From: a virus
DNA: 36,401 nucleotides
IMG/VR virus record: IMGVR_UViG_3300011116_000555
Span: 1-36,401 of that record
Reading direction: 5' to 3' (one strand)
In this document: positions 3,354 through 33,795 of the stretch, one piece after another
Layout of the letters: every line of letters begins with the position of its first letter
How positions within the stretch are numbered: the first letter of the stretch is position 1
The notes under the pieces: model-generated
What the model saw: the letters and a program-made list of their open reading frames with translations, nothing else
The model's database searches: none
What the model was told of the DNA's origin: nothing
Program-made: the position numbers and the translations under genes

Positions 3354-3576
3354 TTTTATTGGTTTGCCCATTGCCACCTTAAATTCCCTGCGTGATAAGT
3401 ATATTACTTGCTTGGAGGCAATTGCGGTGGCAGGTGCAAGTTATTCTATTGCTGGAAGATCATTCAGCAGGGCAAATTTATCTGAGGTGAGAGAGATTAT
3501 TGCAGAATTGACCATTGCAATTCAATCTGCATCTGGCACAAGAATCAGAACCACCTATGCAAAATTCGGCCCATGA
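3340..3576 (+). CDS. gpW-like head-to-tail joining protein
   Basis: A 78-residue helical protein with YSIAGRSFSRANLSEVREII near its middle, matching the helix-hairpin-helix plan of lambda gpW, which fits under the portal after packaging. It lies between terminase and portal, as W does in lambda. The frame can start at TTG 3334, but the ATG at 3340 has GAGGAG seven bases upstream and is preferred. Its start lies inside the terminase gene, 13 nt after a TTGACA. It overlaps the portal start by ATGA. Confidence 0.8.
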   Translation: MAKGDFIGLPIATLNSLRDKYITCLEAIAVAGASYSIAGRSFSRANLSEVREIIAELTIAIQSASGTRIRTTYAKFGP

Positions 3577-6500
3577 AGCTTAAACAGACATTCCTGGATA
3601 AGCTTGTTTCATTTGTAAATCCCCAGGCTGGGGTTCAGAGGCTGATGGCTAAAAAAGCCCTAACAAAATTTGAATATGATGCAGTGAAATACACCAGGGA
3701 AAGGCGGGGGCCGAGCAATCTATCTGGTGCAGAGGACTATAGATCAAATTATGATCGTGTAGAACTGATGAAGAGGGCAAGAGACCTGGCAGAAAACAAT
3801 GGCCTGGTTCGCTCCATCTTGATGAAGTTTGCAAGCCATGTTGCATCAAATATCACATACCAGGCCAGAACAGATAAGCCCAAGGTAAATACTGAAATTG
3901 AAGCCTATTGGAATCAGTGGTTTGAGAATTGTGACCTATCAACCAGACATACAGGCTCAACCCTTATGCAGGTTGCAACCATGTCCATGCTCCGCGATGG
4001 AGATTTTCTTTTTGTATTGGTCAGAGATAAAGATGGAGACTTGAGGCTCCAGGGAATTGAATCTGATAGACTCGGCGACCCTTACAAAACTTATACAAGC
4101 TTGGAGCTTATTGGTGGTATTCACATTGATAGAGGAACAGGAGCACCAACTGCCTATGATATTTATAATCGTAGCATTGGAGATTTTTATACATACCAGG
4201 CAACTATTCCAGCAAGCCAGGCATTCCACTATTTTGACCCACTTAGGATTGATCAATATAGGGGTGTGTCTGCTTTCCATACAGCCATAAATGATGCCAC
4301 TGATATTTATGATATTGTGAACTTTGAAAAACTGGCCGCAAAGGTTGCCAGTTCACAGAGTGCAGTTGTGAAAAGGTCGAACAATAATGCCTCTGACCTT
4401 AGTGCATTAACCACAGAGGAAAACTTTGATAATCAACAAATTAAGTTGGAATCAATGGAATCTGGAAAGGTTAGTTATCTTGAGCCTGGAGAGGACATTA
4501 TTTTCCCAGACGGCCCTAGCAGACCCAGTGGAGCCTTTGCAGAGTTCCATAAAATTTTGCTGAGAAACATTTGCATGGGGCTTGGAATCCCATACTCCTT
4601 TGCTGTCGACCCATCTGCAATGTCCGGCCCAACAGCCAGGCTTGAAATGCAACAGGCTGGAAGAACTTTCAACAGATACCAGAAGCTTCTTAATGATAAG
4701 GTTCTGAGCCCAATCAAGAACATTGTTATTGCTGATGCTGTAGCCAGGGGAATTATCAGTGGGAATGGAGCCAAAACAACCAAAGGCTTTTTCAACTTTG
4801 GAGCAAATGTCTCTATCGACCTTGGACGGGAATCTGCATCAGCTATTGCAGAGTTCAAGGCTGGACTGAGAACTGCTTCAGATATTTACTCTGAAAGGGG
4901 TATGGATGTTGAAGCCGCCTTTAGGGCAAGAGCTATTGAGACCAAAATGATTCAAGACCTGGCAAAGGAGTATGGAGTTCCAGCCCAGGCAGTTTCTGAA
5001 ATTCTACTTCCCACAGGCCAGCCAGCACAACAAGGCCAACCAGGGCAAACAACCCAAGATGGTCAGCAAGTGGATGGCCAAGAGGATGTTATTGGCCAGA
5101 GTCTTAATGGAGCCCAGGTTGCCTCTCTTATCAATGTTATCAATGCAGTTGCGGCTGGTGCATTGTCCAAAGAGGGTGCAGTTTCAGTTATCACAGCCGC
5201 CTTCCCAACTATTTCAAGGGAACAGGCCGTCGGAATTGTTGCTGGTGTGCAGTCTGGAAAAATCATTCCAACCACAGAAAAAGAAAAACAAGCTGTCCAG
5301 GATGGTCAAAAGGATGAAGGCCAGGGTGGGGCTCCAGTTCCAGAAACACCAAAAACCCCAGTTCCTCCAACAGGCCTGGAAGAATTAAAATGCCCACTAC
5401 CAACTCAAGACATAAAGCTTAATTTAGAGAACAGGCAAACAGCAGTTGATAAGGCCAACTACGGGCCAGCCAATCCAAATGAACCCAATGAGGACTATTG
5501 GAAGGCAAAGGCCAATGAGTTCCAGGGTGATGTTGCAACAGCAAAGAAAATGCTTTGTGGTAATTGTGCCGCATTCAATCAAACAAGCAGACTACTTGGT
5601 TGCATTAAAAATGGAATTGGTGAAGATGCCAATGAGGTGGCACTTGGTGGAGACCTGGGATATTGTGAAATTTTTGATTTCAAATGTGCGGCCAAAAGAA
5701 CCTGCGATGCCTGGATTGTTGGCGGCCCATTAACAGATAAAAAAAAAGAAACTGAGCAAGCTCTATCAAGTTTAAGCCAGCAAGAGCTTAAAATGCTCAT
5801 TGCTGGAATGATGGGTGGAATTGAGTTGGGCAAGTATGATGGCATTGATTTTACCCCACCAGAAGGGGCAAGATTGGCCGCCAAAAGGGCTTTGGCAGTA
5901 AGGGAACAGAAACCATCTAGTCAAAAGGGAATGACGCCTGTAGGCATAGCCAGAGCACGAGATTTGATCAATGGAGTTAAGTTCTCTCCAGATACCGTCC
6001 GCAGAATGAAGGCATTCTTCGATCGCCATGAGGTTGATAAGAAAGGTGAAACCTGGGACGACCAAGGCAAAGGATGGCAAGCCTGGAATGGATGGGGTGG
6101 AGATGCTGGGTATTCCTGGGCAAAGAAAGTAGTTGGCCAGATGGAATCTAGGGATAACAAACAATTGGCACGCCCAATTGCCCAAACACCAGCACCAGCC
6201 AAAGACAGAATCAAGGGCTCAGAGCAAAACAAACCCGGCTCTGCGGCAACTAAAAGCACAGGAGGCAAAATTGAGATTGGAGAAGGAACAGAAGAATCCA
6301 TTAAGAATAAACTAAAGGAATGGAAAGATAAGCACCCAAACAAGAAAGCTCCATCTCTTGGAACTCTAATGAAGGTATTCAGAAGAGGTGCTGGTGCTTA
6401 CTCAACAAGCCATAGGCCAACCATCTCTGGTGGGGCTCCAAATAGCCGCAATGCCTGGGCAATGGCCAGGGTTAATAAATTCTTAAAGATGGCAGGTGGT

Positions 6501-7973
6501 GGTGAAGTGAAGAAAAGCTATAGACAGGCAGACGGAGATTTGCTTGAGGCAATTACATCAAATACCAATCTTGCGGCTGGTGATGGGCTAAATCCTTGTG
6601 GCATGAAAGATGACGGAACTTTCGATGATGAAAATGAATGTGCTCAAGGCTATGGAAGGCCAAAACTTGTTGGTGGATATACCCCTAAAAGGCCTGGCGG
6701 AAAGATTCCGACAAAGCCAGTAAAGCCAACACCAACAGGAACAAAGCCAAAGCCACCACTTCCACCACCCCCTCCACCACCGTCCCCTACTGGTGGAACA
6801 AAGCCTACAGATGAAAAGGAATCTAAATTTCCAAATTCGAAAAAGGAATATGACAGCAGGGAAAAGGCATCTCTTGAATCAGCCATTAAAGGAAATCAAA
6901 AGGAACTTGATTCAGTAAGACAAGCAGTCATCAAAAAGTCAGAAGATACGCTAAAAGAAATAGATTCTGCAAAAAATAATATTGCTGAATCACAAAAACA
7001 ATTAGAGGAACTTAGAGCAAAAGCAAGACCCCTAAGAAATGAGGCTGAGCAATATAGAGAATCAGACCCCAAAAAGTATATTGAAATACGAAGAACACTA
7101 GACATTGAATATGCAAAAATTAATAAACTGGAGCAAAACATTGAAGAGCAAGAAAAAAAAATAAAAACAGCAAATGAAAAAGCCAGGCAAATTGGATTTG
7201 CTGAAATCAAAAAAGATATGCTGGCTGTAAATAAACAGGATGGATTCTCATCAGAGCAATTAGCAAAGGCAACCCAAGGGCTAAAAGAACAACAACAATC
7301 AGCAATTGTTAATGATCGCAAATCACTAAAAGATAGTGCTATTGAATATGTTAAGGCAAGAAGAGAAGCGGCACAAGGAGCATTAAGAGAGATATGCAAT
7401 CCAAACATTCACACTAAATCATTAACAAGGCCAGTTACATATTGGAATCAGAAAAGAGCAGATTCAACTGCAACAATAGTGCAGTTTGTAGATGGAACAA
7501 GAAATTCAACAGGTGGTGGAATAAGGGTTAGCATAGAGACAGAGACAAAAACCTATATGCATGAATATGGGCATCAAATTGAAGATGGAAATCCAGAAGC
7601 AAAAGACCTTTGCATGGAATTTCTTAATAAAAGAACTGCTGGAGAAAAGATTCAAAAGTTCCAAAAGACAATGCCAGGCTACGGCTACAAAAGATATGAA
7701 AAGGGTTCAGCAGATGGGTTTGGAAAGGCTCATGCAGAACTTTTTCCAGAATTTGATACAAATAATCGGGCATATTATACTGGCAAAAGATATGATGATC
7801 AACCTTTTGGAGCTAGTTCAAAGTATATTGGAGCAACAGAAGTTTATTCTATGGGAATGGAATTGCTTCACAGAAATCCAGCAAAGTTTGCCAAGATAGA
7901 CCCAGAGTGGTTTGATCTAGTTACTGGAATTGCAACAGGAAGATTGCTAAAGAAAACAAGAGGGGTAGAATAA
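3573..7973 (+). CDS. Portal protein fused to accessory modules and a C-terminal zincin-like domain
   Basis: A 1466-residue open frame. Residues 1 to about 480 are a lambda gpB-type portal (FDPLRIDQYRGVSAF, the ICMGLGIPYSFAVDPSAMSG region). Then follow a Gln-rich linker (about 485-510), a Cys-rich module from about 662 (CGNCAAF, DFKCAAKRTCDAW), a module with GKGWQAWNGWGGDAGYSWA near 830-850, a module with RRGAGAYSTSHRP near 935, a proline-rich hinge near 1050-1080, a charged coiled coil (about 1090-1250), and a C-terminal domain with HEYGH at 1330-1334 and a candidate third ligand E1423. Ordinary portals are about 450-550 residues. From about 6800 the DNA is markedly A-rich, suggesting that the last part was acquired. 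The extra modules are found in phage head proteins generally, but I do not know their functions. The C-terminus would sit inside the capsid. Confidence 0.9.
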   Translation: MKLKQTFLDKLVSFVNPQAGVQRLMAKKALTKFEYDAVKYTRERRGPSNLSGAEDYRSNYDRVELMKRARDLAENNGLVRSILMKFASHVASNITYQARTDKPKVNTEIEAYWNQWFENCDLSTRHTGSTLMQVATMSMLRDGDFLFVLVRDKDGDLRLQGIESDRLGDPYKTYTSLELIGGIHIDRGTGAPTAYDIYNRSIGDFYTYQATIPASQAFHYFDPLRIDQYRGVSAFHTAINDATDIYDIVNFEKLAAKVASSQSAVVKRSNNNASDLSALTTEENFDNQQIKLESMESGKVSYLEPGEDIIFPDGPSRPSGAFAEFHKILLRNICMGLGIPYSFAVDPSAMSGPTARLEMQQAGRTFNRYQKLLNDKVLSPIKNIVIADAVARGIISGNGAKTTKGFFNFGANVSIDLGRESASAIAEFKAGLRTASDIYSERGMDVEAAFRARAIETKMIQDLAKEYGVPAQAVSEILLPTGQPAQQGQPGQTTQDGQQVDGQEDVIGQSLNGAQVASLINVINAVAAGALSKEGAVSVITAAFPTISREQAVGIVAGVQSGKIIPTTEKEKQAVQDGQKDEGQGGAPVPETPKTPVPPTGLEELKCPLPTQDIKLNLENRQTAVDKANYGPANPNEPNEDYWKAKANEFQGDVATAKKMLCGNCAAFNQTSRLLGCIKNGIGEDANEVALGGDLGYCEIFDFKCAAKRTCDAWIVGGPLTDKKKETEQALSSLSQQELKMLIAGMMGGIELGKYDGIDFTPPEGARLAAKRALAVREQKPSSQKGMTPVGIARARDLINGVKFSPDTVRRMKAFFDRHEVDKKGETWDDQGKGWQAWNGWGGDAGYSWAKKVVGQMESRDNKQLARPIAQTPAPAKDRIKGSEQNKPGSAATKSTGGKIEIGEGTEESIKNKLKEWKDKHPNKKAPSLGTLMKVFRRGAGAYSTSHRPTISGGAPNSRNAWAMARVNKFLKMAGGGEVKKSYRQADGDLLEAITSNTNLAAGDGLNPCGMKDDGTFDDENECAQGYGRPKLVGGYTPKRPGGKIPTKPVKPTPTGTKPKPPLPPPPPPPSPTGGTKPTDEKESKFPNSKKEYDSREKASLESAIKGNQKELDSVRQAVIKKSEDTLKEIDSAKNNIAESQKQLEELRAKARPLRNEAEQYRESDPKKYIEIRRTLDIEYAKINKLEQNIEEQEKKIKTANEKARQIGFAEIKKDMLAVNKQDGFSSEQLAKATQGLKEQQQSAIVNDRKSLKDSAIEYVKARREAAQGALREICNPNIHTKSLTRPVTYWNQKRADSTATIVQFVDGTRNSTGGGIRVSIETETKTYMHEYGHQIEDGNPEAKDLCMEFLNKRTAGEKIQKFQKTMPGYGYKRYEKGSADGFGKAHAELFPEFDTNNRAYYTGKRYDDQPFGASSKYIGATEVYSMGMELLHRNPAKFAKIDPEWFDLVTGIATGRLLKKTRGVE

Positions 7974-7981
7974 TAACTCTT

Positions 7982-8242
7982 ATGATCAAAATTGTTGCTA
8001 TTTTTTATGATGATGAGAAAACATTGATAACCATAGATGATAAAGGTATTTCAATTGATTCTAAATATGATCAAATTATTAAGCTTATAAAATCAGTATA
8101 TAGTCGTGCTGTTGGAAATTATGGGCCGTCAGATGGCTTCTTTGGAAAATACTTGGCAATGCAGTTAGATAAGTATGGTGCAGAAATAGTAGAAGTATCA
8201 GATACAGAGGAAGATAAAGCAGAGGGGAATGCGGTTTACTAA
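7982..8242 (+). CDS. Small unknown protein downstream of the zincin domain
   Basis: An 86-residue, mildly acidic protein (FYDDEKTLITIDDKG near the N-terminus, SDTEEDKAEGN at the end) predicted as mixed alpha/beta. It starts eight bases after the portal-fusion stop and shares the same A-rich composition and codon use as the zincin part, unlike the protease gene after it. That shared composition suggests the two arrived together. An immunity or chaperone partner of the zincin domain is possible but unproven. There is no clear Shine-Dalgarno sequence. Confidence 0.7.
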   Translation: MIKIVAIFYDDEKTLITIDDKGISIDSKYDQIIKLIKSVYSRAVGNYGPSDGFFGKYLAMQLDKYGAEIVEVSDTEEDKAEGNAVY

Positions 8243-8273
8243 GTTTTAATGCTTTGACATAACCTTGGCATTT

Positions 8274-9431
8274 ATGCCCTTGCCCCTTCCTACAGGTGAC
8301 GAATCTGAACAAGACTTTGTTTCCCGATTCATGGGAGATGAAGAGGCAATAAGCAAGTTCCCGGATGAAACCCAAAGGGCGGCTGTAGCATATAGCACCT
8401 ACAGGGATGAAGAAGAAATGGAATGTGGGGAAAATTGTGAATGCCAAGAATGTGAAATGGAATCTGGAGATTTTGGAGGGGTAAGCATTCTTGAGATTGG
8501 TGAGGCAAAGGGGCATGACCTTTTTGTAGATAAGCTTAGCCTAGAGAAGGCCAAGGACATCATGAACCAGGCTCCTAATGGGGTTAAGGTTAAAATGAAC
8601 CATGGCTCTGGGTTGGATGCAGTCGTTGGATTTGCAAGGAATGCAAGGATTGAAGGAAACAAGCTGGTTGCAGACCTAAAGCTTTTGAAGAGTAGCCAGC
8701 ACTATGGATTGATTAAAGAGATGGCTGATGAGGCTCCAGACCAGTTTGGAATCTCCCTGGCATTTGTGAATGAGAGTGAATCAATCAATGGCAAGGACTA
8801 TATCAGACCCCAAAGCATTGCCTCTGCTGACCTGGTATCCAGCCCAGCGGCTACAAATGGCCTGTTTGAAGAAGTTGTAAAATTTATGCAAAAATTCGGC
8901 TATGTGGCCGGAGGTAAGCCAATCCCCGTCGATCTGCCCAATGCAGTTGTTGAAGGTGATGGTTTGACAAAAGAAGGAGAAGCAATGGAAAATAAAGAAG
9001 GCTATGATTATAAAAAGGATATGGAAGATATTAAAACTCGCCTATCCGCCCTTGAGGATTCTATGAAGCCCAAGGAAGAAGTTAAAAAAGACGAAATGGT
9101 TAAGGATGAATCCTCTAAACAGGAAGTTGTCCAGGCTCAAGAAGCCCCCACTATTGCTGTTAAAGAAGAGGACAAAGAAGAAGGTGGATGTGAATCTGAG
9201 ATGTCAGAAGTTGTTAAAAAAGTTCTGACCCAGTTTGGCATCAAACCTATCCCTGCCTCCCCAGCTGTTGAGGTTGCTCTTGAAAAGAAAGAGGAGCCCA
9301 AGAACTTTGAAGCGCTTGTTTCTGCTCATGCAGAATATAAGACTTCGAAGCTGAAGGCCATGAAGGCCGTCATGCTTTCTAACCCGAAAGAATATGCTGA
9401 GGCTCTTAGCCGTGGCATTAAGAACATCTAA
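8274..9431 (+). CDS. Prohead protease with C-terminal scaffold
   Basis: A 385-residue protein. The N-terminal PLPTGDESEQDFVSRFM and FPDETQRAAVAYSTYR segments are common at the front of phage prohead proteases. Residues about 75-205 look like the protease, with KMNHGSG supplying a candidate catalytic His and FGISLAF a candidate Ser. From about residue 235 it becomes a charged, coiled scaffold. The ATG at 8274 gives the usual family start; a TTG at 8265 is possible. TTGACA lies 14 nt upstream. It stands between portal and decoration protein, as lambda gene C does. The catalytic residues are inferred. Confidence 0.85.
   Translation: MPLPLPTGDESEQDFVSRFMGDEEAISKFPDETQRAAVAYSTYRDEEEMECGENCECQECEMESGDFGGVSILEIGEAKGHDLFVDKLSLEKAKDIMNQAPNGVKVKMNHGSGLDAVVGFARNARIEGNKLVADLKLLKSSQHYGLIKEMADEAPDQFGISLAFVNESESINGKDYIRPQSIASADLVSSPAATNGLFEEVVKFMQKFGYVAGGKPIPVDLPNAVVEGDGLTKEGEAMENKEGYDYKKDMEDIKTRLSALEDSMKPKEEVKKDEMVKDESSKQEVVQAQEAPTIAVKEEDKEEGGCESEMSEVVKKVLTQFGIKPIPASPAVEVALEKKEEPKNFEALVSAHAEYKTSKLKAMKAVMLSNPKEYAEALSRGIKNI
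8985..9431 (+). CDS. Nested in-frame scaffold protein (Nu3-like)
   Basis: An internal ATG in the same frame as the protease, preceded by AAGGAG (8974-8979) at five bases and by TTGACA at 8964. It would yield a 148-residue acidic/basic coiled protein (starting MENKEGYDYKKDMEDIKTRL) equal to the scaffold half of the protease. Lambda makes Nu3 in just this way from within gene C. The Shine-Dalgarno match is better than at the protease start itself, so separate production of scaffold is likely. Confidence 0.75.
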   Translation: MENKEGYDYKKDMEDIKTRLSALEDSMKPKEEVKKDEMVKDESSKQEVVQAQEAPTIAVKEEDKEEGGCESEMSEVVKKVLTQFGIKPIPASPAVEVALEKKEEPKNFEALVSAHAEYKTSKLKAMKAVMLSNPKEYAEALSRGIKNI

Positions 9432-32533: not shown

Positions 32534-32924
32534 ACAGGCCAACTTATTTGGTGGAGAGCTTGAGCCAGACCAGGGTGATTCAAAGTATTCATCAAAGATA
32601 GAGGCTCCTATCTATGAGCCAAAGAACAAGAAGCCTCACCTGCTTGAACTGGTTGATATTGCAAAATCAAACAGCCTAATTAGGGAGATTCTTGCATCAG
32701 ACATTCCACAAGATGTGAAGGAGTTTCTGATTGAGGCGGCCAAGAGGCATAGTGTGTTCAATTATGAAAAGATTGCAGACTACTATGCTCATGCCACGCC
32801 AGAGGTTCAGCATCTAATGGAGAAGTCTGCCCTGGTTATCATAGACTTCGGGAAGGCCATTCAAAATGGATATGTGAAGCTTTGTGATGAGATAAGGAGC
32901 CAATATCTTGAGCAAACAGAATGA
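32517..32924 (+). CDS. Conserved phage protein, unknown
   Basis: A 135-residue protein starting at GTG, with GGGAGG six bases upstream. The C-terminal part (REILASDIPQDVKEFLIEAA; KIADYYAHATPEVQHLMEKS; LVIIDFGKAIQNGYVKL) is a recurring phage block that I associate with ParB-like and base-modification neighbourhoods, but its function is unknown to me. It is directly followed by the GREB1/TAGT-like glycosyltransferase. Confidence 0.6.
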   Translation: MDGIHKQANLFGGELEPDQGDSKYSSKIEAPIYEPKNKKPHLLELVDIAKSNSLIREILASDIPQDVKEFLIEAAKRHSVFNYEKIADYYAHATPEVQHLMEKSALVIIDFGKAIQNGYVKLCDEIRSQYLEQTE

Positions 32925-33795
32925 TTTTGCCATCTTCATCCTAACCCACGGCAGACCAACCAATGTAAAGACCATGGCAACCCTTCAGAGGGCTGGCTAC
33001 ACTGGAAAGCTTTACCTGGTTGTGGATGATGAGGACAAGACCCTGGACAAATACATTGCCAACTTTGGCAAGGATAGGGTTGTGGTATTCAACAAGAAGC
33101 AGTTGGCAGACCAGGTTGATGAAGGCAACAACTTTGATGAGAGAAGGACAATCACTCATGCCAGGAATGCCTGTTTCCAAATAGCCAAGGACAAGGGGCT
33201 GAAGTTCTTTATGGAGTTAGATGATGACTACATATCTTTTGAATACAGATATGTAAGCAGGTGTGGTGAGAAGCTTAATGTTCACAGGATAACAAACCTG
33301 GACAGCATTCTTGGGCTCTACCTTGAGTTTTATAAAGCAACAGGGTTCTTTAGCATAGCCTTTGCCCAGGGTGGAGACTTCATTGGTGGTGTTGAAAATA
33401 GATATGCCACTAAGAAGCCATTGATCAGAAAATGCATGAACTCATTCATCTGCTCTCCAGATAGGCCATTCCAATTTATTGGTGCAATGAATGAGGATGT
33501 GAATACCTATGTGACCCTTGGCTCAAGGGGGACAATGTTTGGAACCATCCCAATGATAAGCCTGGTTCAGACAGCTACCCAGAGCCAGAAAAACGGTATA
33601 ACTGATATGTATCTGAGGTTTGGAACATACTGCAAGGCTTTCACTACGGTGATGATGCACCCATCCAGTGTTAGAATTTCTATGATTAACACCAGCAACC
33701 CCAGGATTCACCATCTTATTAAGTGGCAGAACACAACCCCAATGATTGTCTCAGAGGAGCATAAGAAGCCAGTGTGTGTAAGTTGTGACAAATAA
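32908..33795 (+). CDS. GREB1/TET-associated-type glycosyltransferase-like protein
   Basis: A 295-residue protein starting at TTG with AAGGAG eight bases before; an ATG 12 bases on is out of frame. FAIFILTHGRPTNVKTMATL, KLYLVVDDEDKTLDKYIANF, a HARNACFQIAKDKG helix and FMELDDDYISFEYRY are the motifs of the GT-A fold seen in GREB1-like and TET/JBP-associated glycosyltransferases. Those phage enzymes are proposed to glucosylate oxidised bases in DNA. No TET/JBP dioxygenase is visible here, so the acceptor is uncertain. The gene stands in the replication block, apart from the other glycosyltransferases. Confidence 0.7.
   Translation: MSKQNDFAIFILTHGRPTNVKTMATLQRAGYTGKLYLVVDDEDKTLDKYIANFGKDRVVVFNKKQLADQVDEGNNFDERRTITHARNACFQIAKDKGLKFFMELDDDYISFEYRYVSRCGEKLNVHRITNLDSILGLYLEFYKATGFFSIAFAQGGDFIGGVENRYATKKPLIRKCMNSFICSPDRPFQFIGAMNEDVNTYVTLGSRGTMFGTIPMISLVQTATQSQKNGITDMYLRFGTYCKAFTTVMMHPSSVRISMINTSNPRIHHLIKWQNTTPMIVSEEHKKPVCVSCDK

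What the first reader, a model, noticed from the sequence alone, without database searches (positions are those of the whole stretch)
3573..8242. Portal fused to about 980 extra residues ending in a zincin-like domain, with a companion ORF
The portal continues without a stop into a Cys-rich module, two further phage head modules, a proline hinge, a coiled coil and a domain with HEYGH plus E1423. The last part and the 86-codon ORF after it share an A-rich composition unlike their neighbours. Twelve portal subunits would place twelve such domains inside the capsid, ready for ejection or cleavage. MuF-type head proteins with C-terminal toxins are known; a zincin on the portal with an immunity-like small gene would be a distinct version.
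Basis: partly seen in the sequence, partly recalled or inferred. Interest (0 to 1): 0.85.

Follow-up and report, generated by a model that had tools for sequence, protein, structure and literature searches.

The report
Phage portal carrying a swappable protease
A phage's DNA-entry ring protein carries at its end an exchangeable enzyme, here a predicted zinc protease encoded with its own small partner protein, probably packed in the particle and delivered into the bacterium at infection; similar cargo is known on a neighbouring head protein (MuF), so this is a new variant of a known strategy.

Summary
One 1466-codon frame (3573-7973) runs from a lambda-type portal into extra modules and a C-terminal HEYGH domain, followed 8 nt later by an 86-codon gene under purifying selection. 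AlphaFold folds the last 242 residues confidently (pLDDT 93.8); H1330, E1331, H1334 and E1423 are invariant in 51 relatives. Near-identical portals (>=92%) carry other C-termini at the same place: a second HExxH family, no cassette, and one unidentified domain; portals ~79% identical carry ADP-ribosyltransferases. DNA homology to these stops at residue ~1046 and resumes at nt 8250, so zincin and small gene are exchanged as one block. The same zincin sits on MuF and other carriers; [quoted passage not shown] Best reading: a portal-borne polymorphic effector cassette with a cognate partner, probably an inhibitor. Delivery, proteolysis and inhibition are inferred; a fused AlphaFold model did not support docking. 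MuF toxins with small immunity ORFs, and portals fused to other effector enzymes, are published: a new variant of a known kind.

The parts
3573..4982 (+). Lambda-type portal core, residues 1-470
   Evidence: Pfam PF05136 E 2.9e-56; phrog_21; TIGR01539 partial
5373..5738 (+). Cys-rich module, residues ~601-722; optional, absent or relocated in relatives
   Evidence: absent from L021/L023 or found in the next ORF in other relatives
5832..6152 (+). phrog_2859-like module, residues 754-860
   Evidence: E 3.5e-19; last block collinear with differently tipped portals ends near aa 858
6342..6515 (+). DUF5824-like module, residues 924-981; lies in a separate downstream ORF in other-cassette relatives
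6588..6818 (+). Cys-containing linker (NPCG..GTF..N.CA.GYGRP) and Pro-rich hinge, residues 1006-1082; leads into the cassette in types A, B, D and L040
   Evidence: shared with L030, L033, L040
6819..7292 (+). Coiled-coil segment, residues 1083-1240
   Evidence: 48% A, low GC; helical in the part modelled
7293..7970 (+). Zincin-like domain, residues 1241-1466
   Evidence: AF2 of residues 1225-1466: pLDDT 93.8, pTM 0.90; phrog_33618 E 1.2e-9, phrog_19443 minor head protein E 1.6e-6
7560..7574 (+). HEYGH motif, H1330-H1334
   Evidence: H, E, H invariant in 51 sequences
7839..7841 (+). E1423 of the E(V/I)(Y/L)SMG motif, predicted third zinc ligand
   Evidence: invariant in 51 sequences
7982..8242 (+). 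86-aa companion gene, predicted cognate inhibitor/immunity protein
6588..8249 (+). Exchangeable effector cassette; exchange within ~6710-8249, linker shared
   Evidence: blastn homology to L030/L033/L040 stops at 6703-6735 and resumes at 8250-8252
8265..9431 (+). Next head gene, presumed prohead protease (assignment from sequence pattern, no library hit); constant downstream border

Best explanation
The portal is the carrier of a polymorphic effector cassette. The constant part (portal, optional modules, Cys linker, Pro hinge) puts a variable enzyme at its C-terminus, which in tailed-phage portals faces the capsid interior (general knowledge). In this phage the enzyme is a divergent zincin metallopeptidase; relatives carry a different HExxH enzyme, an ADP-ribosyltransferase, or nothing there. 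The enzyme is most likely packaged as part of the portal ring or as a fragment cleaved from it, and enters the next cell with the DNA, where it cleaves a host (possibly defence) protein. The 86-aa protein made from the next gene most likely binds and restrains the zincin in the producing cell until assembly and lysis. Shown: fusion, signature and confident fold, co-exchange of zincin and small gene, conserved pairing across carriers, homology of partners. Inferred: packaging, delivery, proteolysis, target, inhibition.
For: Swapped C-termini on one portal family; sharp exchange borders including the small gene; Pfam ART on portal L099 and Alt-like or minor-head ART hits on L069 and L087 in the same slot, a virion-delivered enzyme class; zincin on MuF carriers (10 of 19 tested over the PF04233 cut-off, 1 PF06152, 1 other portal); 33/34 zincin clusters with a small ORF versus 7/94 control genes, p 1e-22; partner profiles homologous (hhalign P 1.4e-7; 1.8e-6 without close relatives; reversed/shuffled controls 0.1-0.7); partner folds b-b-b-a-a-b with confidence; purifying selection on both. 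Precedent: MuF toxins Bxa and Apk2 with demonstrated immunity proteins (PMC11699363); 89% of MuF toxin genes followed by small ORFs (PMC5576092).
Against: No virion proteomics or activity. The fused zincin-partner AF2 model gave pTM 0.75 and a disordered partner tail, so docking is not supported, although the test was weak (4-residue linker, two paired rows). Foldseek found no PDB relative. No integrase found, and MuF toxins are described as restricted to temperate phages.
Confidence: 0.62

Rival explanations
1. The zincin is an autoprocessing peptidase that trims the long portal polypeptide or releases its modules during or after packaging, with the small protein timing it.
For: Proposed for polyvalent-protein MPTases such as P1 DdrB (PMC5512222); the protein has several modules that could be released.
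Against: Portals with the same modules carry unrelated enzymes or nothing in this slot, so processing by this domain is not generally needed; the same zincin sits on MuF and small carriers with no other recognised effector domain.
Confidence: 0.17
2. The zincin is a maturation factor of the capsid interior (cleaves scaffold or portal), the small protein being its chaperone or a structural component.
For: It sits in the head module, directly before the presumed prohead protease; relatives are annotated as minor head or head morphogenesis proteins.
Against: Type C portals (14 representatives) lack any such domain and partner and have the same next gene.
Confidence: 0.1
3. The pair is a toxin-immunity device acting between phages or lysogens (superinfection exclusion), not an infection-promoting effector.
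For: Toxin-immunity layout and exchange as one block.
Against: No integrase in the window and no lysogeny gene among about 20 larger ORFs tested; a late-expressed portal is an unlikely source of exclusion.
Confidence: 0.08

Closest known systems
MuF polymorphic toxins (Jamet 2017 PMC5576092; Bxa and Apk2, PMC11699363)
   Same: Head-module carrier with variable C-terminal enzyme (20% of MuF toxins are metallopeptidases) and a small downstream ORF; the same zincin family occurs on MuF carriers here
   Different: Carrier here is the portal itself, without a MuF domain; no lysogeny gene found
Portal fusions to PBECR, 2H, Nudix or ART domains and polyvalent proteins (PMC5512222, PMC9503650)
   Same: Enzyme domain fused to the portal and predicted to be packaged and injected; zincin MPTases are the commonest polyvalent domain
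   Different: Single zincin at the tip with a dedicated partner gene, exchanged as a cassette on otherwise near-identical portals; this was not found in the passages read
Phage T4 Alt, virion-delivered ADP-ribosyltransferase
   Same: Alt-like ART occupies the same slot in relatives
   Different: Alt is a free internal head protein; the window carries a zincin

Membership tests
Lambda-type portal (PF05136) | Portal core above the Pfam cut-off | tested here: met
   191.6 bits against a cut-off of 32.9
Zincin-like metallopeptidase | HExxH plus distal Glu, conserved | tested here: met
   invariant in 51 sequences
Zincin-like metallopeptidase | Fold similar to a solved zincin, ligands together | tested here: inconclusive
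   Confident model, Foldseek PDB none, coordinates not available; BFVD hits are phage proteins including a head morphogenesis domain, with only sub-significant IrrE-like matches
Zincin-like metallopeptidase | Zn binding and proteolysis | not testable with these tools
   needs protein
MuF polymorphic toxin | N-terminal MuF domain | tested here: not met
   only the portal and sub-threshold DUF5824 matched meaningfully in Pfam
MuF polymorphic toxin | Variable C-terminal toxin domain on a constant carrier | tested here: met
   with the portal as carrier
MuF polymorphic toxin | Small ORF directly downstream | tested here: met
MuF polymorphic toxin | Temperate phage | tested here: inconclusive
   no integrase found; completeness of the contig unknown
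Immunity protein | Travels with its toxin | tested here: met
   present with every type A portal, no match in other types; co-exchanged
Immunity protein | Binds the toxin | tested here: inconclusive
   fused AF2 model pTM 0.75, tail disordered
Immunity protein | Neutralises the toxin | not testable with these tools
   needs a co-expression assay
Polyvalent protein | Several distinct effector domains in one injected polypeptide | tested here: not met
   only one recognisable enzyme domain in this portal; L084 may carry two, by eye only

The most novel reading that the evidence does not exclude
A delivery system in which the portal ring itself is the loading platform for swappable effectors, including a new zincin family paired throughout tailed phages with one dedicated inhibitor family that moves with it between portal, MuF and other carriers, also in phages without lysogeny.
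Probability: 0.35. Interest if true: 0.75.

Novelty: new variant of a known kind. Interest (0 to 1): 0.58.

Why it matters
It extends phage polymorphic effectors from MuF to the portal with a clear natural swap series, and defines a zincin-partner pair with two testable activities (protease, inhibitor). Portals with and without the cassette give a natural control for what head-borne enzymes do.

Tried and rejected
Partner tail ([VI]Y-type end in 21 of 34) as an active-site plug: the tail stayed disordered in the fused model, so not claimed. Foldseek PDB: chance matches only. PDB sequence search with the zincin profile: nothing significant. Partner against Pfam, PHROGs, NCBIfam and phage tblastn: nothing convincing. 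The first mixed alignment misplaced distant partners and was replaced by A5. In one search query 9 carried a made-up N-terminal prefix by mistake; its weak hit is ignored. JAB-like (L040 'THNHP') and ParB-like (L084 'IIDGWHRA') labels rest on the eye only and were not supported by PHROGs.

Full report
What is there. The window is an IMG/VR virus record of 36,401 bases. Gene order: ParB-like (74-553), small and large terminase, head-tail adaptor, the long portal, the 86-aa ORF, presumed prohead protease, scaffold/decoration-type protein, major head protein, then glycosyltransferases and an endolysin. The portal ORF is 1466 aa; residues 56-370 match Phage_portal_2 at E 3e-56. The extra ~980 residues hold a Cys-rich module, a phrog_2859-like module, a weak DUF5824 match, a Cys linker, a Pro hinge, a coiled coil and a C-terminal HEYGH domain. 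The stretch 6819-8242 is the lowest-GC 1.4 kb of the window.

The C-terminal domain. It matches two phage families, one called minor head protein. An alignment of 51 relatives leaves ten invariant residues, including H1330, E1331, H1334 and E1423. AlphaFold gives pLDDT 93.8 and pTM 0.90, with HEYGH inside one helix and E1423 at the start of a later helix, as in zincins. Foldseek found no solved relative but seven predicted phage proteins with probability 0.99 or more. Catalysis and the exact ligand geometry are therefore inferred.

The slot is polymorphic. A scan with the portal core returned 80 loci. Their C-termini fall into unrelated classes: A, this zincin (11 representatives); B, another HExxH family (21 representatives; phrog peptidase E 5e-6); C, nothing (14 representatives); D, ADP-ribosyltransferases (L099 Pfam ART E 2e-8; L069 and L087 Alt/minor-head-type hits); and singletons of unknown nature. 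Portals at least 92% identical to this one include A, B, C and one singleton. DNA comparison shows that homology with other-cassette portals stops around residue 1046 in the linker/hinge and resumes at nucleotide 8250, just after the stop of the small gene. Zincin and small gene are thus exchanged together. In B, D and the L040 singleton the DUF5824 module lies in the next ORF, behind a short cassette-specific start; in several B loci this start is a free 28-54 aa ORF.

The companion. Every complete type A portal is followed by it after 8-9 nt; no other type has a match. Both genes are under purifying selection (dN/dS 0.08-0.20). Zincin relatives elsewhere (149 viral, 11 genome hits) sit mostly on MuF proteins, plus one unrelated portal (L138) and free proteins. 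Of 34 clusters, all are followed by a 70-120 aa ORF and 33 look credible, often with a 4-nt overlap, against 7 of 94 other long genes in the same loci. Profiles of partners from portals and from other carriers align with P 1.4e-7, or 1.8e-6 without the closest group, against 0.1-0.7 for reversed and shuffled controls. The partner is predicted as a compact b-b-b-a-a-b fold with a disordered tail.

Mechanism. The natural exchange with ADP-ribosyltransferases, a class known to be packaged and injected (T4 Alt), and the shared use with MuF carriers favour a delivered effector over a processing enzyme. The constant, co-exchanged partner fits an inhibitor or immunity protein, as shown for the MuF toxins Bxa and Apk2 (PMC11699363). 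The attempted fused model did not support docking (pTM 0.75); it was a weak test and is reported as inconclusive.

Novelty. MuF toxins with metallopeptidase tips and small ORFs are published (PMC5576092), and so are portals fused to PBECR, 2H, Nudix and ART domains (PMC5512222, PMC9503650). A zincin-tipped portal with a dedicated partner, and its cassette exchange, were not found in the passages read. Verdict: new variant of a known kind.

Noticed in passing
L258, L259, L263, L265, L266, L268 (downstream of type B HExxH domains): Distant type B relatives are followed by a different small ORF with a CxxC...C.AFP.GIP...DHR.P..GD.G pattern, suggesting a second enzyme-partner pair.
   Followed up: partly
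L105 (Planktothrix phage PaV-LD ORF80R-82R): Two zincin genes in tandem share one downstream partner ORF.
   Followed up: partly
L084 (portal 3992-7975): Portal of 1327 aa with an ART-like segment inserted between core and phrog_2859 module and a second unknown domain at its end; the linker CGTG.GGFKEGNTCAGG occurs before each (by eye).
   Followed up: no
window 32908-33795: Strong match to phrog_842, beta-glucosyl-HMC-alpha-glucosyltransferase (E 3e-63), in a small phage; possible DNA or surface glucosylation.
   Followed up: no
window 5373-5738 and L060, L082, L095: The Cys-rich module moves between the portal and the DUF5824 ORF in different relatives.
   Followed up: partly
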